In this document: piece by piece, positions 7,500 through 59,296 of the stretch
Layout: the number at the start of each line of letters is the position of its first letter
Numbering within the stretch: the stretch's first letter is position 1
Assembly: GCF_014270035.1 (NCBI RefSeq)
Contig: NZ_JACNEP010000012.1
Location: 1 to 64,000 of the forward strand
Length of the DNA stretch: 64,000 bases
Reading direction: 5' to 3'
Origin: Neptunicella marina
GTDB taxonomy: Bacteria; Pseudomonadota; Gammaproteobacteria; Enterobacterales; Alteromonadaceae
Notes under the pieces: model-generated
What the model saw: the letters and a program-made list of their open reading frames with translations, nothing else
Told to the model about the DNA's origin: nothing
Database searches by the model: none
Program-made: the position numbers and the translations under genes

Positions 7500-8429
7500 T
7501 TATTTTAGAGGGGACTCAAATCCTTCTGGTTTTACAGTAAGTACATCACAATCCAGAGAATCAATGACGTGTTCTGCTGTATTACCAATGAGAGCGGCTG
7601 AGATACCTGTTCTGCCCACGGTACCAATAATAACCAGCTCTGCATTAATGTCTTTGGCTACCATAGGGATAACGCTCTCTGGTAAGCCTTCATTTACATG
7701 ATTGTTACTCAGATCAAACTGATGCTTTTCGGCAAATTCACGTAATGATTGTTTGTGATAATCACGCACCGTTTCATTGTAGTTTTGTGGATCAAACTCA
7801 GGAATTTCTATTGCAATATTTACCGGCGTGCCGGGATAAGCATTAACCAGATGAACATTTGCATTAAGTGTACTGGCGACACTTTTACTTATGCTGGCCA
7901 GTTTGTCATTTAATGCTCTGTGTTCGTCATCTTCGGTTCCGGCGCTAATTGCACACAAAATATTGCCTTTCTCTGGCCAATCCTGTTCTTTTACCAATAA
8001 TACCGGACAGGGGCATTTTCGAATCAAATGCCAGTCTGTTGGGGTAAATACCACTGCCTTTAATACACTGTGTTCATGTGTACCCTTGACGACCAGATCA
8101 TATGTGCCCTGAATAACTTCATGAATGATGCTTTCAAAGGGCCGATTGTGCCATACCACCTTAATATCGATGCTTAATGACGGATCGGGTTGGTAACTGG
8201 CGATGACAGACTCCAGCCACTGGGTTCTGTCTTCGACCACCGATTGACGCATTGCTTCGCGTTCGGTAACGGACAACATGGTTGTCATTTCATAAGAAAA
8301 GTCATAAATGGTGAGCAGTGCAGTAATGCTTGCGCCGGATTTTCCAGCAATGTGTAATGCACGTTTCAGCGATTTTTGCTGCTCTGTGGCGGGGTCTATT
8401 ACTGCGAGTAGCTTTTGATATTTCATCAT
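7500..8429 (-). CDS. uspE: Universal stress protein E
   Basis: This 309-aa protein consists of two tandem Usp domains, as in E. coli UspE. Each contains a strand-helix core, and the second carries the ATP-binding-like [18 protein letters not shown] near residues 270-287. UspE is a cytoplasmic stress protein whose gene lies next to fnr in many gammaproteobacteria, as it does here. GGAGC precedes the ATG at 8429. An FNR-like box is centred about 88 bp upstream of the start, so oxygen-responsive control is likely. Confidence 0.93.
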
Positions 8430-8510
8430 AGTAAAGCTCCTGATTGCATGAATTAATCTTGCTTTATCATCAGTCTAAGCTTTCGAAGGTGGATAATCCA
8501 CCCCGAAACT

Positions 8511-8524
8511 ATGATGTATATCAA
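8511..8524. promoter_or_regulatory. FNR-type operator upstream of uspE
   Basis: The sequence ATGATGTATATCAA matches the FNR/Anr consensus TTGATnnnnATCAA at nine of ten defined positions. It lies between fnr and uspE, and transcription of uspE runs leftward from it. A minus-strand TAGACT at 8477-8472 could be the -10 box. That would place the site near -52, about one helical turn from the usual class II position. Confidence 0.6.
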
Positions 8525-8528
8525 TAAT

Positions 8529-9212
8529 TTAGTCAGCCAGAGTTGGAACCAGTAAATTAATCAGTTTGCCTTCAACTGAGATTTTGCCGTCTTTTTGTAG
8601 CTGGGTCAGAATACGGCTGACAGTTTCAATAGATAAACCAAGGTAGTTGCCAATTTCACTACGCGTCATACTTAATCGAAATGAAGTGGGTGAAAAGCCA
8701 CGATCGCCAAAACGATGGCCTAAACTCGCTAGAAAGTGGCTCAGACGTTCATTGGCTGTATATTTATTTAGCACCATCAAAGCTTCCTGATTCTGGCAAA
8801 GCATACCACTCATGGTGCGACTTAACTGTTGACGTAATTTGGGAAACATTTCGCCTAGTTCATCCAACGAGCTGTAGGGTAACTCACACACCATTGAGGT
8901 TTCTAAAGCTTCGGCAAAACTTGGATGGGTTTTATTATGGATAGCGTCAAAACCAATGACATCACCAGGCAAATGAAATGCGGTAATCTGCTCTTGTCCG
9001 TCTTCTGACAGAATAAAGGACTTAAAAGAGCCTGAGCGAACAGCATATAGTGAATGTAAGGGCTGTCCTGCTTCAAACAAACGCTGACGTCTGTGATATG
9101 GATTTTTACGCACGATAATGTCATCGAGCTTTTCAATTTCTTTTAACTCAAAGGAATAGGGCAGACATAGCTGACTAAAATGGCATTGTTGGCAACAAAG
9201 TTGGTTTTGCAT
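8529..9212 (-). CDS. fnr: FNR-type oxygen-sensing transcriptional regulator
   Basis: This 227-aa Crp/Fnr-family activator has an N-terminal cluster of cysteines in CCQQCHFSQLC. A distal cysteine lies in TSMVCELP, as in E. coli FNR, where four Cys hold an oxygen-sensitive [4Fe-4S] cluster. The C-terminal helix-turn-helix (RSEIGNYLGLSIETVSRIL) keeps the E-xx-SR recognition residues that read TTGAT. The ATG at 9212 follows AAAGGA and is preferred to GTG at 9236. The gene lies 29 bp downstream of the TauE/DsbD2-like gene, at the end of the cbb3 assembly cluster, so it may be co-transcribed with it. Confidence 0.93.
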   Translation of the reverse strand: MQNQLCCQQCHFSQLCLPYSFELKEIEKLDDIIVRKNPYHRRQRLFEAGQPLHSLYAVRSGSFKSFILSEDGQEQITAFHLPGDVIGFDAIHNKTHPSFAEALETSMVCELPYSSLDELGEMFPKLRQQLSRTMSGMLCQNQEALMVLNKYTANERLSHFLASLGHRFGDRGFSPTSFRLSMTRSEIGNYLGLSIETVSRILTQLQKDGKISVEGKLINLLVPTLAD

Positions 9213-47574: not shown

Positions 47575-47618
47575 GTATCATGAATTCAAGCGATCTTGAA
47601 ACGAACCAATATAATGTT

Positions 47619-47639
47619 ATATTACGTGTTATGTAATAT
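47619..47639. promoter_or_regulatory. Dyad operator upstream of tnpT
   Basis: ATATTAC and GTAATAT form a perfect 7-bp inverted pair with a 7-bp spacer, overlapping the AT-rich promoter region 29 bp before the tnpT start. It could be a TnpT autoregulatory site or an accessory part of rst. Confidence 0.5.
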
Positions 47640-47667
47640 GTTACTAAATAATCCGAGAGGAATCACC

Positions 47668-48717
47668 ATGGCCCGTGCCGGAGTCACTTATCACGATATC
47701 GCTAAAGCCGCTGAAGCCATTAAAACGCAAGGCCAGGAACCCACGGTGGATCGGGTGCGCGAACACCTGGGCACCGGCAGCAAAAGCACCATCGCGCCAT
47801 TGCTCAAGCGTTGGCGGTCAGACAATGGGGAGGCGGCCGATGTCAGTGGGCTGCCGAACGACCTCGTCGAGGTGGTAAAGTCCCTGCATGAGCGGGTACA
47901 GCAGATGGCCGACCACCGTATCGAACAAGCTCGCCAGGAATTCGAGACTTTAAAGGAAGAACTCCGCAAAGAGTTGACCCATGCCGACAACACCATGGCG
48001 CAACTAACTGCCCGACAACGGGACCTGGAGAACCAGACCGAACGGCTGAGCAAAGAAAAAAGCGAGCAAAGTCGGTCCCTGGAAGACGCGCGTGTCAGCC
48101 TGGCCAAGGCCGAGTCCCAGCGGGACGAAGCTGCTGCACGGATTGTTGAATTGAAGGAGAGCGTTGCGGAACTCAAACAAGAAAATAAGGATATCCGCGA
48201 TCATTTCGAACATTACCAGCAGCGTACTGCCGAAGACCGCCAGCAGGAGCGCGAACAATTCCGTTCAGTTAACCAGGGGCTGAACGATCAGATCCAGGAT
48301 CTGCAACACCGGCTCGCCCAGGCTGAGTCGAGAGCGTCAGAGCTGTTTGACGCCAATGTGCAGTTACAACGACATGCCGATGAATTAAAACGGGCCAATG
48401 GGGCGCTAAATAGCGACGTGAAGGGAAAGATAGAAGATGTCCAGAACCTGAAACACGAGCTTGAAGAAGCCGTGGCAAAGTGCCGGGAATACCAGCATCA
48501 AAATGATCATTTGGCGCAAAACATGGCCGTGCTCACCACTCAGAAAGCTGATGTTGATAAGCAAGTGGCCGTCTTATCCCAAACACTGGAGACCACAAAA
48601 ACCGAATTGAAAACCACCCAGGATAAAGCGGCGCTTCTGATCGACGAGAATAAAGTCATTCTTCAGGAAAAAGCCGTGATCCAAGGTCAATTTAAACAGC
48701 TCCAAAGTTCGCTGTAG
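47668..48717 (+). CDS. tnpT: TnpT coiled-coil partner of TnpS
   Basis: This 349-aa protein has a KfrA-type DNA-binding N-terminal domain (VTYHDIAKAAEAIKTQGQEPTVDRVREHLGTGS, about residues 6-38; quoted here only to mark its span). A long coiled coil of nearly 240 residues follows, full of heptads rich in Glu, Lys and Gln. TnpT helps TnpS bind the rst site. The ATG at 47668 follows GAGAGG; an upstream in-frame ATG at 47596 is not needed. Confidence 0.85.
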   Translation: MARAGVTYHDIAKAAEAIKTQGQEPTVDRVREHLGTGSKSTIAPLLKRWRSDNGEAADVSGLPNDLVEVVKSLHERVQQMADHRIEQARQEFETLKEELRKELTHADNTMAQLTARQRDLENQTERLSKEKSEQSRSLEDARVSLAKAESQRDEAAARIVELKESVAELKQENKDIRDHFEHYQQRTAEDRQQEREQFRSVNQGLNDQIQDLQHRLAQAESRASELFDANVQLQRHADELKRANGALNSDVKGKIEDVQNLKHELEEAVAKCREYQHQNDHLAQNMAVLTTQKADVDKQVAVLSQTLETTKTELKTTQDKAALLIDENKVILQEKAVIQGQFKQLQSSL

Positions 48718-49203: not shown

Positions 49204-49249
49204 TTATGCTCAAAGTGGCTAAATCCAACGCTTTTACCGGCCGGACCTC
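49204..49249 (-). repeat. Right terminal inverted repeat of the transposon
   Basis: It is the inverted counterpart of 27687-27732, with one mismatch in the outer 37 bp and about half matching in the next nine. It ends with GGACCTC and is followed by AACGTT at 49250-49255, the repeated target bases. Confidence 0.93.
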
Positions 49250-49985
49250 AACGTTCCGCTATCCGAATGGCCATATCACTTGTGGTATTAGACAAGAAAA
49301 TGGCAAATTCCTCGCCACCAATCCGACCAATAGTATCAAAGGGTCTTATTTCCTGTTGGAGTGATTGGGCTAGCTTTTTAAGTACCAGATCGCCAATTTG
49401 ATGACCAAAGTTATCATTAATTGATTTAAAAAAATCCACATCAATAATCATTAACGACATAGGTACAGACGCATTTTCGCAATTATTAAGGCTGGTTTTA
49501 ACGGTTTCAACAAAGCTTCGCCGATTCGCCACCTGGGTTAATTCATCGGTAAGTGCCATATATTTATATGAAGAGAGGGAAGACTGCAGTGTTTGTTGGG
49601 TTACTTTCTGTTTGGTAATGTCTTTTATATGCACTAACAAGTAACCGTTTTGGTTGAGTTGTTCGGAAAAGATAAACCAGCGGCCGTCAACAAAATCCAC
49701 TTCAAATAATCGGTATTCTCGTGAACGCCTGACGCTGCGAACATATTTTAGAAATGCATCAATATTACCTGAATCAACTTTTATACCACGGCCAGTGGCT
49801 TGATTAATTTTTAAAATATCCTCAAAGCAAAGCTTGCCAACATCGGAACGATTGATGGACATAATGTCCAGATAAGCATCATTACAATAAACCAACTGAT
49901 CCCGGTCATTAAATAATCCATATCCATCATTTTTAGAATGGATAAACGACATCAGAACATCGACGTAATCGTTTGTGTTGTTCAT
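49250..49985 (-). pseudogene. 5' part of the diguanylate cyclase gene split by the transposon
   Basis: The frame starts with MNNTNDYVDVLM (ATG at 49985) and encodes a PAS-like sensor domain (about residues 10-125). It continues into most of a GGDEF domain with LTQVANRRSF, DVDFFKSINDNFGHQIGD and the active site GGEEF. The last codon before the transposon is in IAER, and a TGA arises at once in the inverted repeat. The 27481-27686 fragment supplies the missing end. The truncated product lacks the last beta strands and is not expected to be active. Confidence 0.93.
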
Positions 49986-50311
49986 ACAAAACCAGTAAAT
50001 CGCTAATCTCAAAATTAATTTTAGTCTAAAAGATTCAATCAGCTATTTTTTGAAAATCAACCGGATACGGTCAGCTACTCAATGTTCGAAATTATTATTT
50101 AATTAAATTTAATTCTAAAGAGTAGAGCACCAATGTAAGTGCAAACAAGGACTAACTATTAAATAAAGCAATATAATTAATTTAACATAATATACATTAT
50201 GAGAATATGCATAAAATTATCAGAATGGCAGAATCACTATATACGTGTATATAGGTCGCACGTCTCACTGTCATTTTGCGCACAGCGTGTTTGTTATTAA
50301 ATGGTTTGAGT

Positions 50312-50542: not shown

Positions 50543-51403
50543 TTAGTGTCTTTGCTCTGGAGTTTCAGTTACAAGATCTGCTTTTGCAAATCTCAGAATG
50601 CCCTCCATATTATCGAACTGATCAACATTGACACCTAAATGTTTTATCTCGCCCACAATATGGTCATACACCTGAACAAAGTTGGCTCTATCGAGAGTTG
50701 GGCGTTCAACGGCAAATAATGCTCTATCTGGCATGACAACATTATTATTTATTAATTTTTGAATTCGATTAACCCACAGCTCGCCGTGTTCAGCAGCCTT
50801 CAAGGGAGTAAGTTGATCGAAAGCCAATGGTTTGATCACACGAATACCCTGCTCTGTTTTTCGAACAAATGGTACAGTGATGTCGAAAATACCGGCCTTT
50901 AAAGTCTTCTCAACATATTTAACAGGTAATTTAGTTTTGAAAGTTTGCCTCAACACCCTAACCATTTGCTTTTCGCGATAATCATCATTAACGAAATTGC
51001 GAGCAACAAAACGCTGATACAGGTTTTCAAGTTCTACTATGTCGTTTTCTTCACCCATCTTCCGCCCAACATTGCCGAAATGAACTACAGATTCGCGATG
51101 ACGCGTTAATTCACCAAAGTAATCAACCAGTTGTTTACCGCGTATACCATGGTCAATGCAGTATTGTTGGATACGGTCTAATTCAGCGGTAAAGGTATCA
51201 ATCGCATTCTTGTATAGTTTCCCATCCAAGTCTTCGAAAAACTGAGTTACACGGCCAAAGCGCTTGGGAGCGAGTTTAAATAAAAATCTTCCTGTCTTGG
51301 GTGCGATCAACACTACACCTACATTGGCAAACTCTCTGGTTTCAATAAAGGGCATAAAGCGCACGACTGCGTATTGATAAACAGTATTGAAATTGCTTTT
51401 CAT
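50543..51403 (-). CDS. DUF3037-family protein paired with the HipA-like kinase
   Basis: This 286-aa soluble protein begins with YQYAVVRFMPFIETREFANVGVVL (spanning about residues 10-33), the signature of DUF3037. The rest is alpha/beta without motifs I can assign. DUF3037 genes are commonly found beside HipA-like kinase genes, as here, where its ATG overlaps the kinase stop (ATGA). The role is unknown; it may be the kinase's substrate or inhibitor. It is the last gene of the six-gene hsd operon. Confidence 0.8.
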   Translation of the reverse strand: MKSNFNTVYQYAVVRFMPFIETREFANVGVVLIAPKTGRFLFKLAPKRFGRVTQFFEDLDGKLYKNAIDTFTAELDRIQQYCIDHGIRGKQLVDYFGELTRHRESVVHFGNVGRKMGEENDIVELENLYQRFVARNFVNDDYREKQMVRVLRQTFKTKLPVKYVEKTLKAGIFDITVPFVRKTEQGIRVIKPLAFDQLTPLKAAEHGELWVNRIQKLINNNVVMPDRALFAVERPTLDRANFVQVYDHIVGEIKHLGVNVDQFDNMEGILRFAKADLVTETPEQRH

Positions 51404-52131
51404 CGTAGAGCCCTCCAGAAGTCAACATGTTTGAATGCGTCCAATACTACCCTTATTCGTTCTATTTCGCCAAGCGCATTAGGTATCTCGTCTAGCCACT
51501 CCCTCGGAATGGAGCCAATAATTGCATCCAAATCGTTTAGAGTTTGTGCAAATTTTGCCGTGTAATAGTCCCGATCGATTTCAGGCTCAAACATATCGGC
51601 TTGGCCTTTAAACATAAAGTTAGCGACATGAAAGTCCTTGTGATTTTGTACACTAAAGTTAGGTTCAAATGCCAAATTATGATCAAATATTACAAGTGAT
51701 GCAGAGACAAGATTGAAATACAAGTTGGGGTTTCCACCACTTTCAGTAAGTGTTCTATCGCCATTATGAATCCAGTAATCGAACATGAACAAATCCCTTA
51801 GAACTTGACGGTCAGAGCGATATAACAATTCGACATTAACTTCAATCAAACAAGGTTTTAAAACTGAACCGAATGCGACACCGCTACCAAGACTCATCAA
51901 TAAGTCTGCGTCATATTCAACTAAAAAGTCATCAATATTAACCAATGCAAAATCAGGGATAGCTAAACCAAAACGCTGTCCTAAATTTGCGGCTATCCAT
52001 TCATACAAACAACCTTTGAATGTTGCATTGAGGCGTTTAACTACGTATTGATTATTATCATCACCCAAGCAAAGCCAAGGTTCAGTTTTGCCTTGTGTCA
52101 TTTTTTGTTGGATTTCGATGATGTTAATCAT
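51400..52131 (-). CDS. HipA-like kinase
   Basis: This 243-aa protein has the HipA-2-type pattern. A Lys in QYVVKRL is the likely nucleotide-binding residue, HNGDRTLTESGGNPNLYF (about residues 121-138) is the catalytic loop with Asp-Arg, and VIFDHNLAFE holds the metal-binding DHN. HipA kinases phosphorylate translation or DNA-binding partners, and HipA-2 proteins lack a HipB antitoxin. I chose the ATG at 52131 with AGG upstream; TTG at 52152 is in frame. It is coupled to the DUF3037 gene by a 4-bp overlap. Confidence 0.8.
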   Translation of the reverse strand: MINIIEIQQKMTQGKTEPWLCLGDDNNQYVVKRLNATFKGCLYEWIAANLGQRFGLAIPDFALVNIDDFLVEYDADLLMSLGSGVAFGSVLKPCLIEVNVELLYRSDRQVLRDLFMFDYWIHNGDRTLTESGGNPNLYFNLVSASLVIFDHNLAFEPNFSVQNHKDFHVANFMFKGQADMFEPEIDRDYYTAKFAQTLNDLDAIIGSIPREWLDEIPNALGEIERIRVVLDAFKHVDFWRALR

Positions 52132-52166
52132 TGGCTGTTTACCTAAAAGCAATTGATTTCAAATCT

Positions 52167-53054
52167 TTAGCCACGGGCCCAACCCAGTTCGACTAATACA
52201 AACCAAAGGCAGTTTAGTGCCAGATTGGCGTCTTCCTGAGAGACAGGTCGAGTTTTATGCTTTTCCTTCTCATTACTTTTACCACGTGGATGCAGCCTGC
52301 GAACAATCTCTGCACTGTGGATAATCAAGTCTTGTCCGTTTGCATTGGAGTTTTTAGCATTAGCTTGATTCTTTTTAATCCGATGGTTAATTCCCTGGCC
52401 CAATTCTAATTCTAAGTTATCTGCCAGTGTACCCAACACAATAGACAATGCGTTTCTGCAAGCATCGACAGTTTCGATTGCGCCAATTCTGTTAGCGGCT
52501 ATTTCAACATTCTCAAGTGCATCTTGTATTAGCGTTTGGGCAATTTCAGGCACCTGGTTTAACATAAGTTCCGGAACCGCCCCAAAGCTGGTCATGGCTT
52601 TCAGGGTCAATAATGGTTTGCCATCAAATTGCGTTTCAATGGATAAGATTTTCCAATAGGTATGATGAGGCGATTTGCCTAAAATAACTTTGGGTAATGG
52701 TGATAATTGACGCAGTGAAGTAAGAGAGTCTGCGTTATAACTGGTAGCTTCGAGTTCTTGTGCTTCACCTTGATCCCACCCTACTCGCTTTAAATCAGTT
52801 CGTCCAAAATCATGGACATGCCAAGGGTCATTGCGGCCTAAAACCTCAGTGTAGACTCTGCCTCGACGAATTTTGGTAATGGGATCAAAGCTATCTTCGC
52901 GAAAAATCATACTTGTTGAAGTACGACCCTGTTGCATCTCAACACCGACAAGTTCTATCGGCATAAGTGGCACATGGTAATTTATCGCTATGCCCGCGCT
53001 ACTATTGCCTTCATACAGTCGGCCGGAGCGCTTGCATATTCCTAGTTCATTCAT
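52167..53054 (-). CDS. Unknown protein between hsdS and the HipA-like kinase
   Basis: This 295-aa soluble protein lies 42 bp after hsdS and 35 bp before the kinase start. The N-terminal half includes GRVYTEVLGRNDPWHVHDFGR (about residues 64-84). The C-terminal half is helical and Asn/Lys-rich, with SAEIVRRLHPRGKSNEK and a final LALNCLWFVLVELGW helix. It has no signal peptide and no motif I can assign. I recognise no family, and the operon position suggests that it works with either the R-M enzyme or the kinase. The ATG at 53054 follows AGG; a TTG at 53072 is in frame. Confidence 0.6.
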   Translation of the reverse strand: MNELGICKRSGRLYEGNSSAGIAINYHVPLMPIELVGVEMQQGRTSTSMIFREDSFDPITKIRRGRVYTEVLGRNDPWHVHDFGRTDLKRVGWDQGEAQELEATSYNADSLTSLRQLSPLPKVILGKSPHHTYWKILSIETQFDGKPLLTLKAMTSFGAVPELMLNQVPEIAQTLIQDALENVEIAANRIGAIETVDACRNALSIVLGTLADNLELELGQGINHRIKKNQANAKNSNANGQDLIIHSAEIVRRLHPRGKSNEKEKHKTRPVSQEDANLALNCLWFVLVELGWARG

Positions 53055-53096
53055 AAATTTCGCCTGTGACAATATTTTTCAACTCATTAATAGTGT

Positions 53097-54866
53097 TCAT
53101 AACACCTGTTCCACAATGGCGTCGGTGAGGTGCAGTTGGGTGGTTTGGGCTTGGTTTAAATGGGCTTTCAGTGAGTCACATAAGGCCATTAACTTATCAA
53201 CTTTAGCGACTATGCGTTTTTGTTCTTCGAGCGGAGGAACTGGAGATACTTTCTTTTTTAAATCCCCTAGTAGTAAGTTATTTATCGCACTACCGCCTGA
53301 CTTATTTAGAAAATTGTGAGTTTCTGACTGAATAAATAAAGCCGCAAACCTGTTATAAATATAACCTTTGGCAACTTTTATAACTGCCACGCTTTTTTGA
53401 AAAGTAGTTTTCCTAGTGAAGTCATTATTTTCAACTAGCGCCATTTTCCCAATCGTAGCACCTGTATTTACCATACATATATCACCAGGTTCTAAGTTAG
53501 TCCTTTGATGAACCTCAGAAAATTCAGAAAACTCTATTTGTCTGGCTTTTTCGTAAACCAACTTTCCATTTTGAATATCTTTTGCAGATAAAAAGTAATA
53601 GCCAGAACCTTCCAAATTTACACAATCTCCGTGTTTCCCATCCGTAATTAACAACGTAATTTCCTGTAAACGACTCCAACTCCACCCCGATGGCAGGGCA
53701 TATGGCTTTTCTTCCTCTGTGATGGGGGGCAGTGGCTTTTGCTTTTTGATTTTACCGGCTTTGATTAGGGCCTGTTTTTCTGCAGCGATGCACTCCAGTA
53801 GTTTGGAAGCGGGTTCGTCGTTGGGGTCTTGTTTGACGAGTTTGCCCATAACGGCCAGTTGCAGGATGGTTTGCTTTAGCTGGTCGATGCTGTCGTCATT
53901 TGTAAACAGTACGTCAAAGTGGGCGCTGATGCGCAGCCAGCTGTCGTTGAGTTCATCGGCGCATTTGGCGTTGGTCAGGGTAGCTAGCAGGGTTTCAACT
54001 AAGGTCTGATGCGCCTGAATACTGGCCTCGGTCTCCGTCTCTAACTGATCACATAGGGCCATTAATTCATCTACTTTAGAAACAATGCGATATTGTTCGG
54101 ACAAAGGCGGTAAATTGATAATCAGCTCGCTGAACCTGTTAGAAGAGATTCCTCCTATTATCCCTGTCATTGCTTCACTAAATTGACAAAAAAACGTAGG
54201 TGACAAGTATGTATATAAAATAAATTTAGAACTTACATCTCCAAATAATTCATTAGCAAAAAGTTTATTCCCGAAACAAATATCTTGGTTGGCAATGCCG
54301 CATTTCTTACCAGCACTCCCTCCTTCTGCACAGATTAAAACAGAGTTACTGTGCGCTATTTTGAATTTAGGTTCATCGAAAGGTATTAGGACACCATTGT
54401 TGTAATCGAGAGACTTATATCCATAATCAACATCTTTTGTGGCAATAAATGGTAAGCCACTATCTAATCCAGTATATTTTTGTTCCTTTAAACGAGAATT
54501 TACGCTATTACCGTTAAAAATATTACCTATATTTCCTAACCTAATAAAAGCCGATCCATCGGGTAACTCAAACGGTTTTTCATCTTCAGTAACTGGCGGC
54601 AATTGCTTTTGCTTTTTTATTTTGCCTTCTTTTACTAATCTGGATTTTTCCGCTTCTATCTTTTTAAGCAACTCACTAGCTGGTTCATCATTGGGGTTTT
54701 GTGGGACCAATTTACCGCGCACCGCCAGCTCCAGAATCAGTTCCCGCATCTTTTTAATACCATAAATATCCAGCTTGCTGGTGCGTCCTCGTCCGGCGGC
54801 GGATTTGGTTTTGACCGCCGAGGTCCAGATATCCAGATTTTCGGTAATTATCGACTCCACAGACAT
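53097..54866 (-). CDS. hsdS: Type I restriction specificity subunit HsdS
   Basis: This 589-aa protein has two target-recognition domains, each bordered by repeated conserved helices. LAVRGKLVPQNPNDEPASELL and LAVMGKLVKQDPNDEPASKLL precede the domains, and PPLSEQYRIVSKVDELMALC and PPLEEQKRIVAKVDKLMALC follow them. The two halves define the bipartite DNA site, which cannot be read from sequence. It shares one base with the hsdM stop (TGATG). The repeats allow domain shuffling. Confidence 0.95.
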   Translation of the reverse strand: MSVESIITENLDIWTSAVKTKSAAGRGRTSKLDIYGIKKMRELILELAVRGKLVPQNPNDEPASELLKKIEAEKSRLVKEGKIKKQKQLPPVTEDEKPFELPDGSAFIRLGNIGNIFNGNSVNSRLKEQKYTGLDSGLPFIATKDVDYGYKSLDYNNGVLIPFDEPKFKIAHSNSVLICAEGGSAGKKCGIANQDICFGNKLFANELFGDVSSKFILYTYLSPTFFCQFSEAMTGIIGGISSNRFSELIINLPPLSEQYRIVSKVDELMALCDQLETETEASIQAHQTLVETLLATLTNAKCADELNDSWLRISAHFDVLFTNDDSIDQLKQTILQLAVMGKLVKQDPNDEPASKLLECIAAEKQALIKAGKIKKQKPLPPITEEEKPYALPSGWSWSRLQEITLLITDGKHGDCVNLEGSGYYFLSAKDIQNGKLVYEKARQIEFSEFSEVHQRTNLEPGDICMVNTGATIGKMALVENNDFTRKTTFQKSVAVIKVAKGYIYNRFAALFIQSETHNFLNKSGGSAINNLLLGDLKKKVSPVPPLEEQKRIVAKVDKLMALCDSLKAHLNQAQTTQLHLTDAIVEQVL

Positions 54867-56335
54867 CAGGCATTGCCCTCTTTGGACAGGACTTCGGCTA
54901 GTATGCCATTAAGCTGGTCACGCAGGATTTGGATTTGTTGCTGCTGGTCGGCGTATTGGGCGAGCAACTCTTCCGGGTCGTGGTTTTCCACTTCGCCTAC
55001 ATGGGGGTTTTTAATGTCCAGATTAAAGTTACGGGTAATGACCTCTTCGATAGAGACTTTCCAGGCCTGCTCGTTTTCGACCCGGCTGGCAAAGCCGTCT
55101 GCCTCACTGCCCCACCAGTCGATTTCGGTCTGAAATTCTTCAAACTTCATGGGTTTGGTTTTGGAATAGTTTTTAACGCCTTCCGGGTAAGGGTGCTCGT
55201 AAAACCAGATGTCTTTGGTGGGTGTGCCTTTGGCAAAGAACAGGATATTGGTTTTAATGCCGGTATAGGGGTTAAAAACACCATTGGGCAGGCGCACTAT
55301 GGTGTGCAGGTTACATTCTTCGGTCAGCAGCTTTTTGATTTTGGTCTTTACGCCCTCACCAAACAGGGTGCCGTCGGGCAATACCACGGCGGCACGTCCA
55401 CCGTCTTTGAGCACTTCGATAATCAGTTGCAGAAACAGATCGGCGGTTTCGCGGGTTTGCATCTCAGAGGGGAAATTTTTCTCGATGCCGTCTTCTTCTG
55501 TGCCGCCAAAAGGCGGGTTGGTGACAATTACATCGTAAATGGCATCCCAACTGGAAAGGGGCTTATTTAAGGTGTTGTCGTGGCGGATTTGCACCGGTAC
55601 TTCAATGCCGTGCAGCATCATATTGGTGGTGGCTAAAAGGTGCGGTAACTGCTTTTTCTCGACCCCATGAATTTGCTTTTGCAGGGTTTGATGGCCACTG
55701 CCGGTATTGACGTAATTATTGCGAACATGGTCTACCGAACAGGCCAGAAAGCCCCCCGTACCGCAGGCCGGGTCAAATATTTGTTCGCCTAATTGGGGAT
55801 CCAAACGATTGACCATAAAACGGGTCACCGCTCGCGGCGTATAGAACTCCCCGGCATTACCTGCGGCTTGCAGGTCACGCAAAATTTGCTCGTAAATGTC
55901 ACCGAACACGTGACGCTCTCTGGAATCGGTAAAATCCACCTCATTAAGCTTGTTGATCACCTGGCGCAGCAGCGTGCCGTTTTTCATGTAGTTGAACGCA
56001 TCACTAAAGGCTTCGCGCACTACAAAGCCACGCGGATTCTTATCAATGGGAGCAACCAGGTTTTTCAGATCCGGGAACAGGTCGTCATTGACGAATTCCA
56101 TCAGTTCGTCACCGGTAATACCCTGCCCGTCTGCGGCCCAGTTTCGCCACAGGTATCTATCCGGAATTGGGGGACGGTAGTCATCCAATTCAAGTTCCAG
56201 TTCTTCTTCCTGGGCATCAAAGATTTTTAAAAACAACAGCCAGGAAAGCTGGCCTAAGCGCTGGGCGTCGCCGTCTACACCTGCGTCTTTACGCATAATG
56301 TCCTGGATGGATTTAATGACAGTACTGATAGACAT
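54866..56335 (-). CDS. hsdM: Type I restriction DNA methyltransferase subunit HsdM
   Basis: This 489-aa N6-adenine methyltransferase has a helical N-terminal domain (DAQRLGQLSWLLFLKIFD). Motif I DPACGTGGFL is at about residue 195, and the catalytic NPPFGG motif is at about 273. With HsdS it protects host DNA. It lies 42 bp after hsdR and overlaps hsdS. Confidence 0.96.
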   Translation of the reverse strand: MSISTVIKSIQDIMRKDAGVDGDAQRLGQLSWLLFLKIFDAQEEELELELDDYRPPIPDRYLWRNWAADGQGITGDELMEFVNDDLFPDLKNLVAPIDKNPRGFVVREAFSDAFNYMKNGTLLRQVINKLNEVDFTDSRERHVFGDIYEQILRDLQAAGNAGEFYTPRAVTRFMVNRLDPQLGEQIFDPACGTGGFLACSVDHVRNNYVNTGSGHQTLQKQIHGVEKKQLPHLLATTNMMLHGIEVPVQIRHDNTLNKPLSSWDAIYDVIVTNPPFGGTEEDGIEKNFPSEMQTRETADLFLQLIIEVLKDGGRAAVVLPDGTLFGEGVKTKIKKLLTEECNLHTIVRLPNGVFNPYTGIKTNILFFAKGTPTKDIWFYEHPYPEGVKNYSKTKPMKFEEFQTEIDWWGSEADGFASRVENEQAWKVSIEEVITRNFNLDIKNPHVGEVENHDPEELLAQYADQQQQIQILRDQLNGILAEVLSKEGNA

Positions 56336-56377
56336 GTTACTACTCGTTATTGTTATGGTTGTAAGGCCGGAAAAATG

Positions 56378-58798
56378 CTACGCCGATTTATCGGGAAAAG
56401 CGTAAATGGCCTGTTCTAATTCGGTTATTGCCAAGTCGTATTCGTTACGCCCACCAAAACCATCTTTGACAATTTCCTTAACCGAACCAATGTCGGTAAA
56501 GGGATGCACCTTGATGGTTTGCAGGTTCTCTACTTCCAGCACGCCAGCATCGGCATATTTATCCAGCAGTTTTTCCAGCACGGTCTGGGCTTTGTCTGTG
56601 TATTTGGTGAAATAATTGCGCTTTTTAACGTTATTGGCGCGTTCTTTTCTGGTTAAAGGTGGCTGGTCGAATACAACGTGGCAGATCATATCAAATGGAT
56701 CGAGATCCTTCCCGACTTCCTGCTCCAGTGCATCCCAAATAATGCCTTCATTGGCCAGTTCATTGATAATGGTTTGTTTGCGTTCCGACTGGTTCCATTT
56801 ACGCACAAATTCATCCAGCGTGGCGAACTGTTTGGTCAGGGTTTTACGGGTGTAATCTTTAAAGGATTCAGTCACCAGTTTGCCGTCGGTGTCGTAATAC
56901 TGCACACGCTCGGCGACTTTATGTACCTTTACGCCATTAACATGGTACTTGTAGACCTTTTCTTCATCCTGCCAGTCATCACCGCCGATTTCACCATCGG
57001 GATAGTTGCTTGAGGTAATTTTATTGTCACCACTCTCTTCCTGATTAGTATCTTCGGCTTCTTTGCTTTCAATAACATCGTTAAAGTCTGAATCCGGGTC
57101 GTTAATATCCTTGGCCTTAGTCACAATTATTTTTTCTGGAATACCGTCGAAACGTTCATCGGCAAACAGTTCTGTAGCCTTTTTGAAATCCAAAATGGTA
57201 AACCAGAGCTTATTGTATTCCTCGTCGATGCGCGTACCGCGACCAATGATTTGTTTGAACTTGGTCATGGACTGGATAGATTGATCCAGCACCACCAGCT
57301 TGCAGGTTTTGGCATCCACCCCTGTAGTCAATAACTCTGATGTGGTGGCGATGACCGGATAGGATTTTTTACGATTTAAGAAGTTATCCAGCTGAGCCTT
57401 GCCAACATCATCATCACCGGTGATTTTCATCACGTATTTTTCATTTTTGGCCACCAGCTCCGGATTAAGATTAACCAGTGCACGGCGCATGCGATCCGCG
57501 TGGTCAATGTCGTTGCAAAACACGATGGTTTTGTCCATCGGATTGGTGCGCTTTAAGTAGTTGGTAATGGTTTCAGCCACCAGTTGTGTGCGCTCGTCAA
57601 TAACCATGGTGCGATCAAAGTCTTTTTGGTTGTAGATCCTGTCCTCTATTGCATGGCCCCGTTTATCTACCTGACCTTTGGTGGGTCGCCACCCCTGTAG
57701 GTCGAGATCAATATCTACCCGCACCACTTTATATGGTGCAAGGAAACCATCCTCGATACCTTCTTTTAGGGAGTACATATAGGCGGGCTCACCAAAGTAA
57801 TCGGTGTTGGACACTTCTTCGGTTTCTTTGGGGGTAGCGGTTAAACCTATTTGTGTAGCCGCACTAAAATATTCCAGTATTTCGCGCCAGGCGCTGTCAT
57901 CGGCGGCACTACCACGATGACATTCGTCGATGATAATTAGGTCGAAGAACTCTGGATCGACTTGCTTGTAAGCTTTTTGATGTTCTTCCGGGCCGGTTAG
58001 CGCCTGGTATAAGGCCAGATGCACCTCGTAGGCAGGATCGACTTTACGACCAGTAATTTTGGTCATGGCCTGGCCGAAAGGCTGAAAATCATTGTTGCGC
58101 GTATGATCGACCAATACATTTCTATCGGCTAAGAACAAAATGCGTTTTTTGGCTTTGGCTTTCCATAACCGCCAGATAATCTGAAAGGCGGTATAGGTTT
58201 TGCCGGTTCCGGTTGCCATTACTAACAGCACCCGATTTTGCCCTTTTGACACTGCCTCGATAGTTTTATTGATAGCCTGCAACTGGTAATAACGAGGCGA
58301 TTTACCGCTGCCGTCGTCATAGTAGTCTTGAGTAATTATGGGGAGTTGTTGATCGGTATAGCCTTTATAGGCGCAGAATTTAGTCCACAACACCTGGGGG
58401 CTGGGGAAGTCTTCTAAGGTGATTTCGGTTTCGAGCTGACTGGGATTGGTTTTATCGTGAAAAATAAAACCATCACCATTTGAAGCGAATACAAAAGGCA
58501 CGTCTAAGAGATTGGCATAATCCAAACCTTGTTGAATACCCTTCCCTACTTCATGTTTGTTGGCTTTGGCTTCAATGACTGCCAGCGGCATCGACACCTT
58601 GTGGTAAAGCACAATATCAGCCGATTTCACCTTTTTACGCGCTGCCGCCATGCCGCGTACCACTACTTTACCATCGCGAAGTTTTACCTCCTGACGGATT
58701 TGGTACATATCATCCCAACCGGCATCCTTAATGGCAGGCATGATGTATTTGCTGATAATGTCGGCTTCGCTGAGTGCTTTTTTATTGATTGGAGCCAC
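56378..58798 (-). CDS. hsdR: Type I restriction endonuclease subunit HsdR (EcoEI-like)
   Basis: This 806-aa translocase-nuclease has a PD-(D/E)XK nuclease near the N-terminus ([21 protein letters not shown]). The helicase motifs are MATGTGKT (I), IIDECHRG (II), GLTATP (III) and GRGTRIDE (VI). The EcoEI-type C-terminal domain follows. The GTG at 58798 is preceded by AAGGA at 8 bp. It is the first gene of the operon, and no separate regulator gene lies upstream. Confidence 0.95.
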
Positions 58799-59023: not shown

Positions 59024-59296
59024 CTACATGCGACAATGACCTGAAAGACCAATTTGACTGGTTTTTCGCGCAACATCGGGCACTAAACCGGTGAATTTTT
59101 GTCCCGACATGGTCGTGAAGTTCAGGTTGATTTCGGTAAGAAATAGTTCATTAGCACTTATAATTCTGCCTTCAGTATCCAGCGAGACATGTAACATTTC
59201 AGATTTTAGACTGGCAAAAATTTGTTCGTAAGCGGTAAGTTTTTCTTTAGCGATTGCTAATTTTTGCTCTGAGGCTTTATTGCTGAAGTTATACAT
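59024..59296 (-). pseudogene. Truncated PAS-domain gene, probable chemoreceptor remnant
   Basis: This 90-aa frame begins MYNFSNKASEQKLAIAKEKLTAYEQIF, followed by a PAS start (LDTEGRIISANELFLTEINLNF). This N-terminus matches PAS-containing methyl-accepting chemotaxis proteins of marine gammaproteobacteria. It ends abruptly inside the PAS domain with an unrelated tail (RKTSQIGLSGHCRM). The stop lies in a hairpin TGTCGC-TACAT-GCGACA at 59019-59035. The rest of the gene is absent where the hsd block begins. It could also be an intact small PAS protein. Confidence 0.6.

What the first reader, a model, noticed from the sequence alone, without database searches (positions are those of the whole stretch)
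50543..58798. Type I R-M operon extended by an unknown protein, a HipA-like kinase and DUF3037
Six colinear genes (hsdR, hsdM, hsdS, unknown, HipA-like, DUF3037) have short gaps or overlaps, so they look like one transcript. HipA-like kinases can stop growth. Linking one to R-M suggests a backup that acts when restriction fails, or kinase control of the R-M enzyme. The unknown protein matches no family I recognise and may be the novel element. This is the strongest candidate in the window for an undescribed system.
Basis: partly seen in the sequence, partly recalled or inferred. Interest (0 to 1): 0.72.

Follow-up and report, generated by a model that had tools for sequence, protein, structure and literature searches.

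The report
Three stacked phage-defence modules, one new
Six bacterial genes in a row are best read as three separate anti-virus modules sharing one stretch of DNA: an ordinary DNA-cutting system, a kinase toxin with its antidote that others have already described, and one uncharacterised protein whose predicted shape resembles RNA-cutting suicide enzymes.

Summary
The six genes are there, on the minus strand, tightly packed (50543-58798). They are not one new system. hsdR-hsdM-hsdS is an ordinary EcoAI-like type I R-M system. The last two genes, HipA_2 kinase + DUF3037, are the published defence module HipAD (= DS-6 = PADLOC PDC-M66). Of 19 fetched HipA_2 regions, 17 held the pair and none held a match to hsd or the middle gene. 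Of 7 fetched hsd-related loci none held the pair, though in 2 the place behind hsdS cannot be judged. The middle gene U (295 aa, start 53054) is the undescribed part: no Pfam, NCBIfam or PADLOC family. About 50 relatives were found, mostly Burkholderiales by title; 0 of 50 lie near HipAD. Its C-terminal half is predicted to have a HEPN fold (best 2hsb, Z 10.8) with a conserved H-x-R-G-K motif and no conserved R-x4-6-H. In 9 of 17 tested cases it follows a known or candidate defence gene. Best reading: a solo abortive-infection effector stacked, like HipAD, behind R-M genes. Functions of the window genes are inferred.

The parts
56378..58798 (-). hsdR, type I restriction subunit (EcoAI/FtnUII-like), 806 aa
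   Evidence: NCBIfam NF046051, 1178 bits against a cut-off of 550; Pfam ResIII, EcoEI_R_C, HSDR_N; PADLOC REase_I
54866..56335 (-). hsdM, type I DNA adenine methyltransferase, 489 aa
   Evidence: Pfam N6_Mtase E 5e-91 and HsdM_N; PADLOC MTase_I
53097..54866 (-). hsdS, specificity subunit with two recognition halves, 589 aa
   Evidence: Pfam Methylase_S, two stretches; PADLOC Specificity_I E 7e-202; internal repeats about 870 nt apart
53047..53100 (-). 17-codon mini-ORF bridging hsdS and the unknown gene: its start overlaps the hsdS stop and its end overlaps the unknown gene's start; possible translational coupling
   Evidence: read from the sequence; occurs once in the window; conservation not tested
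52167..53054 (-). unknown gene ('U'), 295 aa: beta-rich N-terminal domain plus a C-terminal domain (about residues 161-295) predicted to have a HEPN fold, with conserved H255-x-R257-G258-K259 and D197
   Evidence: no Pfam/NCBIfam/PADLOC family (36 sequences); 50 homologous loci; AlphaFold2 models; structure matches; conservation
51400..52131 (-). HipA_2 (HipAD toxin-type) kinase, 243 aa, with the kinase core residues K32, N123-x-D125-R126, N134, N136, D150-H151-N152
   Evidence: Pfam PF20613; PADLOC PDC-M66A; invariant residues in 7 proteins; 32% identity to phage HipA
50543..51403 (-). DUF3037 protein (HipD/DS-6B type, presumed antitoxin), 286 aa
   Evidence: Pfam PF11236; PADLOC PDC-M66B; 31% identity over 270 columns to phage HipD

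Best explanation
The run is a small defence island in which three independent modules were stacked head to tail: (1) an EcoAI-like type I R-M system that cuts unmodified incoming DNA; (2) a solo gene U whose product joins a beta-rich, presumably sensing, N-terminal domain to a HEPN-fold C-terminal domain and probably acts as an RNA-cutting abortive-infection effector; (3) the two-gene HipAD module, in which the HipA_2 kinase is held silent by the DUF3037 protein and is freed on infection to phosphorylate a target and stop growth. Shared transcription, if real, would express them together; nothing shows that they touch each other. Shown here: gene content, layout, family assignments, kinase core residues, predicted fold of U, separate distributions of the modules. 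Taken from papers on relatives: HipAD defence, and kinase toxicity neutralised by DUF3037. Inferred: RNase activity of U, its sensor role, release of the kinase on infection, co-expression.
For: Type I families. HipA_2+DUF3037 hit PADLOC PDC-M66A/B and align over most of their length with proteins annotated HipA toxin and HipD antitoxin in Escherichia phage PhiR5_1. Passages of two papers report that kinase deletion abolishes defence, that DUF3037 deletion is toxic, and that a kinase-residue mutation abolishes DS-6 defence. Independence: HipA_2 and DUF3037 hit side by side in 17 of 19 fetched regions (the other two matched neither), 0 of 19 with an hsd or U match; 0 of 7 fetched hsd-related loci, including one with a 74%-identical hsdR, carry U or HipAD (in L111 the contig ends inside hsdS and L113 is an hsdR remnant, so 5 of the 7 are informative); 0 of 50 U loci match the window's HipA_2 or DUF3037. 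U as a defence-island gene: in 17 non-redundant U loci with a same-strand gene ending within 260 bp upstream, 9 of those genes hit PADLOC at E<=1e-8; downstream 4 of 10 chosen; far control 1 of 10, a TnsB-like protein. HEPN: whole-model ranks 1-5; with the C-terminal domain alone, ranks 1-19 before the first unrelated row at Z 6.7.
Against: Tight packing (gaps of 42 and 35 nt, a possible coupling ORF) would also fit a functional unit. Foldseek alone gives no significant match for U (best E 0.47 for the domain, 0.05 for the whole model), and Z 10.8 is below the level (about 13) that the tool names for helical bundles. U has no conserved R-x4-6-H, so RNase activity may be absent. The conserved motif was partly selected for: the scan that found 44 of the loci used a pattern on it or on a second stretch. 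U is rare in this class (3 of 274 genomes, one copy broken). Of 51 U rows only 22 had a same-strand gene within 260 bp upstream, and in 17 the upstream gene is on the other strand, so U need not be operonic. The control for PADLOC enrichment is 10 genes, and some of these longest-ORF calls may not be real genes.
Confidence: 0.8

Rival explanations
1. Guard model: U and/or HipAD are held off by the intact Hsd complex and fire when a phage blocks restriction, as PrrC does beside its type Ic R-M system.
For: Same-strand, near-contiguous layout; published precedent PrrC, a HEPN nuclease encoded among hsd genes and restrained by the R-M system (passage in PMC3710099); U also sits 3 nt (L050) and 16 nt (L021) behind genes of other type I operons.
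Against: U and HipAD mostly occur without hsd in the loci sampled; of 7 fetched hsd-related loci, 5 of them informative, none carries either; no ATPase domain like PrrC's is found in window U (in 36 sequences only one weak AAA hit, E 0.17).
Confidence: 0.1
2. U is not a nuclease but a HEPN-fold binding or regulatory subunit that dampens or relays the signal of the neighbouring defence operon.
For: No conserved R-x4-6-H; some HEPN domains without the catalytic residues are thought inactive (passage); a conserved arginine-rich stretch (positions 61, 63, 64, 66) in the N-terminal domain could bind nucleic acid or a nucleotide.
Against: A set of highly conserved polar residues (D197, R200, H255, R257, K259) loosely recalls HEPN sites, in which an acid lies in helix 2 and the motif at the end of a later helix (helix numbering differs in U). 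AF0298 (2hsb), the best structural match, also lacks the motif histidine and is proposed to use another one. No other gene cluster recurs in more than 7 of 50 U loci, so no fixed partner is seen.
Confidence: 0.25
3. The kinase controls the R-M enzyme by phosphorylating Hsd proteins.
For: Only proximity.
Against: None of 19 fetched HipA_2 regions had an hsd match, and the published HipA/DUF3037 constructs protect without hsd genes being named as part of them (passages).
Confidence: 0.03

Closest known systems
HipAD (DS-6; PADLOC PDC-M66; the HipA/DUF3037 pair of Retron-Sda1)
   Same: Same two families in the same order with a 4-nt overlap; kinase core residues present; 31-32% identity over most of both proteins to HipA/HipD of Escherichia phage PhiR5_1
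   Different: Here it follows hsdS and U rather than standing alone, in a phage, or beside a retron; DS-6B is reported to have DUF1829 as well, which Pfam does not report in the window protein
EcoAI/FtnUII-type type I R-M
   Same: hsdR, hsdM and hsdS, all apparently complete
   Different: Nothing unusual except the genes that follow hsdS
HEPN abortive-infection proteins (AbiA C-terminal domain, AbiJ, HEPN-MNT toxins, AF0298-like)
   Same: Predicted fold, an extra N-terminal domain, defence-island context, an AF0298-like lack of the motif histidine
   Different: No sequence match to a held Pfam, NCBIfam or PADLOC family; H-x-R-G-K in place of R-x4-6-H; beta-rich N-terminal domain of unclear kind
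PrrC beside the PrrI (type Ic) R-M genes
   Same: A HEPN-fold gene among hsd genes
   Different: PrrC has an N-terminal ABC ATPase and a fixed R-M partner; U has a beta-rich N-terminus and usually no hsd match nearby

Membership tests
Type I R-M system | R, M and S subunits adjacent and full length | tested here: met
Type I R-M system | methylates and cuts DNA at a bipartite site | not testable with these tools
   needs methylome data or a phage assay
HipAD (DS-6 / PDC-M66) | HipA_2 kinase gene directly followed by a DUF3037 gene | tested here: met
   4-nt overlap
HipAD (DS-6 / PDC-M66) | kinase core residues present | tested here: met
   K32, N123, D125, R126, N134, N136 and D150 invariant across 7 proteins; their catalytic roles are recalled
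HipAD (DS-6 / PDC-M66) | DUF1829 in the second protein, as reported for DS-6B | tested here: inconclusive
   Pfam shows DUF3037 but not DUF1829 at E<=1, yet the protein aligns with phage HipD over 270 columns
HipAD (DS-6 / PDC-M66) | kinase toxic, DUF3037 neutralises it, pair defends against phage | not testable with these tools
   reported for relatives (passages)
HEPN superfamily (for U) | HEPN helical fold | tested here: met
   first 19 rows HEPN or HEPN-like (10 by title, 3, 6 by recall), best Z 10.8, rmsd 3.7, 114 aligned; a predicted model, and Z below the tool's safe level for helical bundles
HEPN superfamily (for U) | R-x4-6-H catalytic motif | tested here: not met
   no conserved R...H pair at that spacing among 36 aligned sequences; 13 of 36 have one somewhere in the last 140 aa. 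The superfamily includes members without it, so U is called HEPN-fold, not HEPN RNase
PrrC-type R-M-linked anticodon nuclease | N-terminal ABC-ATPase fused to HEPN | tested here: not met
   no ATPase family in window U at E<=1; predicted beta-rich N-terminus
One six-gene system | the same gene order recurring in other genomes | tested here: not met
   0 of 19 HipA_2 regions, 0 of 50 U loci, 0 of 7 hsd loci of which 5 informative; flanks up to about 10 kb, some cut by contig ends

The most novel reading that the evidence does not exclude
U founds a new HEPN-fold effector family that works as a plug-in second line: it is repeatedly placed just behind unrelated defence operons (type I R-M, Gabija, Qat, PD-T7-5, PDC-S28, capP-containing loci) and kills or arrests the cell, through a new H-x-R-G-K active site, when whichever operon stands in front of it is inhibited or overrun.
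Probability: 0.1. Interest if true: 0.75.

Novelty: new member of a known kind. Interest (0 to 1): 0.38.

Why it matters
It removes a candidate 'new six-gene system' by showing that two of its three parts are known, and it isolates the one part worth testing: a protein family with about 50 loci found, in none of the three family libraries searched (Pfam, NCBIfam, PADLOC), that lives among defence genes and has a predicted HEPN fold with an unusual conserved motif. If U proves to be an RNase effector that follows many kinds of defence operon, it would be a ready test of whether bacteria pair generic suicide effectors with arbitrary first-line defences.

Tried and rejected
Rejected: one six-gene system (order not found elsewhere). 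Rejected: U as part of HipAD (0 of 50 loci). Rejected: U starting upstream at TTG 53072 or continuing the 17-codon ORF; homologues start at the same M..LGI point. Led nowhere: profile search of U against PDB sequences (best E 0.13, SATB2); Pfam and PADLOC scans of 36 U sequences (only scattered weak hits; best E 0.0019 in one member, and 0.009 in two); Foldseek on the PDB and viral libraries with the whole model (no hit at E<=0.001). The window's U was not found in phage records at E<=0.01. PHROGs was not searched. Papers: 'DUF3037', 'PDC-M66', 'HipAD' and four combinations on HipA-like, embedded or HEPN genes were searched; nothing in the listings or passages seen describes U, but U has no name to search for. 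Brenes & Laub 2025 and Payne et al. 2024 were seen only as reference-list entries; the first is not held, the second was not tried by id.

Selection and dropped rows: HipA_2 matches over the Pfam cut-off outside the own genome numbered 15 (6, 9); I fetched larger regions for 12 of them and left out three weak ones (G138, G265, G246); of 21 plasmid and 3 phage records hit I fetched 6 and 1. In the upstream count I dropped L022, L023 and L028 (same upstream gene as L021), L027 (same as L026) and L060 (broken U). From alignment A2 I dropped L032, L051 and L054 (stop or frame break), L060, L061 and L063 (short) and three rows identical to others; from A4 also L026 and L028. The downstream set is a chosen 10, not all loci, and one row (L031) has a 518-bp gap. 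The far control is 10 of 20 randomly drawn ORFs. U start points were set by a pattern and are approximate; gene calls in unannotated loci are my own longest-ORF calls and may include false genes. The output was cut in the middle; the HipA_2 counts were redone in full.
Full report
Observation. The six genes are real and colinear on the minus strand, with short gaps or overlaps read from the sequence. Pfam and PADLOC agree on five of them and NCBIfam names HsdR: HsdR of the EcoAI/FtnUII kind, HsdM, HsdS with two recognition halves, a HipA_2 kinase and a DUF3037 protein. The fourth gene (here U) has no family at threshold in any of the three. Its likely start is ATG 53054: homologues begin at the same point. 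Between hsdS and U lies a 17-codon open frame that overlaps the stop of one and the start of the other, which could couple translation; I could not test whether it is conserved.

HipA_2 + DUF3037 is a known module. PADLOC calls the two proteins PDC-M66A and PDC-M66B. Passages of PMC12548924 describe a HipA-like kinase and DUF3037 protein beside Retron-Sda1: the pair was recognised as PDC-M66, kinase deletion removed defence against phage Bas51, DUF3037 deletion was toxic, and the retron parts were not needed. Passages of PMC13092281 describe DS-6, a HipA-related kinase with a DUF3037+DUF1829 partner, renamed HipAD, in which a mutation of a predicted catalytic residue abolished defence. A temperate-type Escherichia phage record annotates the pair as HipA toxin and HipD antitoxin directly after cI, and the window proteins align with these at 32% and 31% identity. 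Across seven relatives the kinase-core residues are invariant.

The pair travels without hsd. Regions reach about 6-10 kb on each side, less at contig ends (for example L083, L085, L088). The nearest relative (54% identity for both proteins, L084) also has no hsd or U nearby. HipA_2 over its cut-off occurs in 7 of 147 relatives and 10 of 274 genomes of the class, the own genome counted in both.

The hsd genes travel without the pair. Among 59 relatives, seven hsdR-related loci were fetched, the closest complete one 74% identical. None of the seven carries a U or HipAD match. Two cannot be judged behind hsdS: in L111 the contig ends inside hsdS, and L113 keeps only a piece of hsdR; L114 and L115 are distant (hsdR 35% and 31%). 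Behind hsdS lie other same-strand genes in L109 (231 aa, then others), L112 (390 and 310 aa) and L114 (672 aa). The slot behind hsdS thus looks like a place where cargo changes, on few examples.

U is an undescribed family living among defence genes. A scan of genome contigs gave 44 loci and plasmids gave 6, about 24-35% identical to U where most of the length is covered, mostly Burkholderiales by record title. That scan required one of two short peptide patterns, one of them on the H-x-R-G-K motif, so the 44 are not an unbiased sample; the six plasmid proteins, found without patterns, also keep H255, R257 and K259. U is in 1 of 98 relatives, the window's own genome, and in 3 of 274 genomes of the class including the own genome, one copy broken. 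None of the 50 loci has a match to the window's HipA_2 or DUF3037; 11 of 50 have some hsd-like match, several weak.

Neighbours of U. Of 51 U rows, 22 had a same-strand gene of at least 120 aa ending within 260 bp upstream (one broken U preceded by its own other half is not counted); in 17 of 51 the upstream gene is on the other strand. After dropping rows with the same upstream gene and a broken copy, 17 remained and all 17 upstream genes were scanned: 9 hit PADLOC at E<=1e-8 - a type I R subunit (L021), a type I S subunit (L050), a partial type II R match (L005), PDC-S28 (L024), PD-T7-5 (L026), QatD (L046), GajB twice (L047, L048) and capP (L058) - and 8 did not (L002, L003, L006, L025, L031, L033, L039, L056). 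One of the 8, L033, is a classical HipA by Pfam. Of 10 chosen downstream neighbours 4 hit; of 10 random ORFs at least 6 kb away 1 hit, a TnsB-like protein. So U is a defence-island gene; since the downstream side is enriched too, I do not claim that the 3' position itself is special.

Structure of U. AlphaFold2 on 36 sequences gave mean pLDDT 79, and for residues 161-295 alone, on 34 sequences, 91. Whole-model comparison puts 2hsb, sacsin HEPN, AbiA, 2q00 and a HEPN-MNT toxin at ranks 1-5. With the C-terminal domain alone the first 19 rows are HEPN or HEPN-like: 10 by their title, AbiA, 2q00 and 2jpu through the HEPN survey (2jpu is the same target protein as 2q00), and six (1ufb, 6m6u, 6m6w, 7bxo, 5yep, 1wty) by my recall; several rows are structures of the same protein. 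The best is 2hsb, Z 10.8, rmsd 3.7, 114 aligned; the first unrelated row is an argininosuccinate lyase at Z 6.7. Cautions: Foldseek E-values are not significant, and the tool warns that helical bundles can reach about Z 13 by arrangement alone. Conserved polar residues are D197, C199 and R200 in the second predicted helix and H255 (36 of 36), R257 (35 of 36), G258 (33 of 36) and K259 (36 of 36) around the end of the fourth. No conserved R-x4-6-H exists. Passages of PMC3710099 say that AF0298 (2hsb) and AbiV also lack the motif histidine while keeping the basic residue and a second conserved histidine, and that HEPN sites place an acid in helix 2 and the motif in the C-terminal part of helix 3; U fits this only loosely.

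Mechanism. Most likely three layers act separately: restriction by Hsd; growth arrest by the HipA kinase once HipD control is lost; and RNA cleavage or another lethal act by U. Precedents for the layering idea are published: PrrC among hsd genes (passage) and HEPN and other 'backup' suicide effectors in BREX operons (passages of PMC12839542).

Verdict. Observation confirmed; interpretation as one undescribed system not supported; HipAD already known; U is a new, uncharacterised family that I file as HEPN-fold with a non-canonical motif, activity untested.

Noticed in passing
window 59024-59296 (-): A 90-aa frame, most of which weakly matches stretches of 438-470-aa open frames in four other genomes: probably a truncated piece of a longer gene at the right edge of the island.
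   Followed up: partly
window 49248-50012 (-): A PAS-GGDEF protein that ends after 102 of 161 positions of the GGDEF profile: apparently cut short at the left edge of the island.
   Followed up: no
window 47596-48717 (+): A coiled-coil protein that looks like a KfrA-type DNA-binding protein (recalled from its sequence, not searched).
   Followed up: no
L021, L024, L026 (around 9.8-16.7 kb): U genes that look very alike by eye share a conserved gene further downstream (cluster 6, about 1135 aa) while the genes in front differ (type I R-M, PDC-S28, or PD-T7-5): defence cargo swapping beside a fixed U.
   Followed up: partly
L004:8940-10421, L044:10913-12406: A gene of about 495 aa follows U directly (30 and 0 nt) in Caballeronia and Paraburkholderia, with no PADLOC family (L004) and no Pfam family (L044): a second possible unknown defence protein.
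   Followed up: partly
L109:10883-13521: Behind the 74%-identical hsd operon in a same-order genome sit other genes (231-aa, 163-aa and 345-aa frames), so the region behind hsdS may be a cargo slot.
   Followed up: partly
L129 (G180), about 8155-8841: A broken U copy with several stops in a genome of the same class.
   Followed up: no
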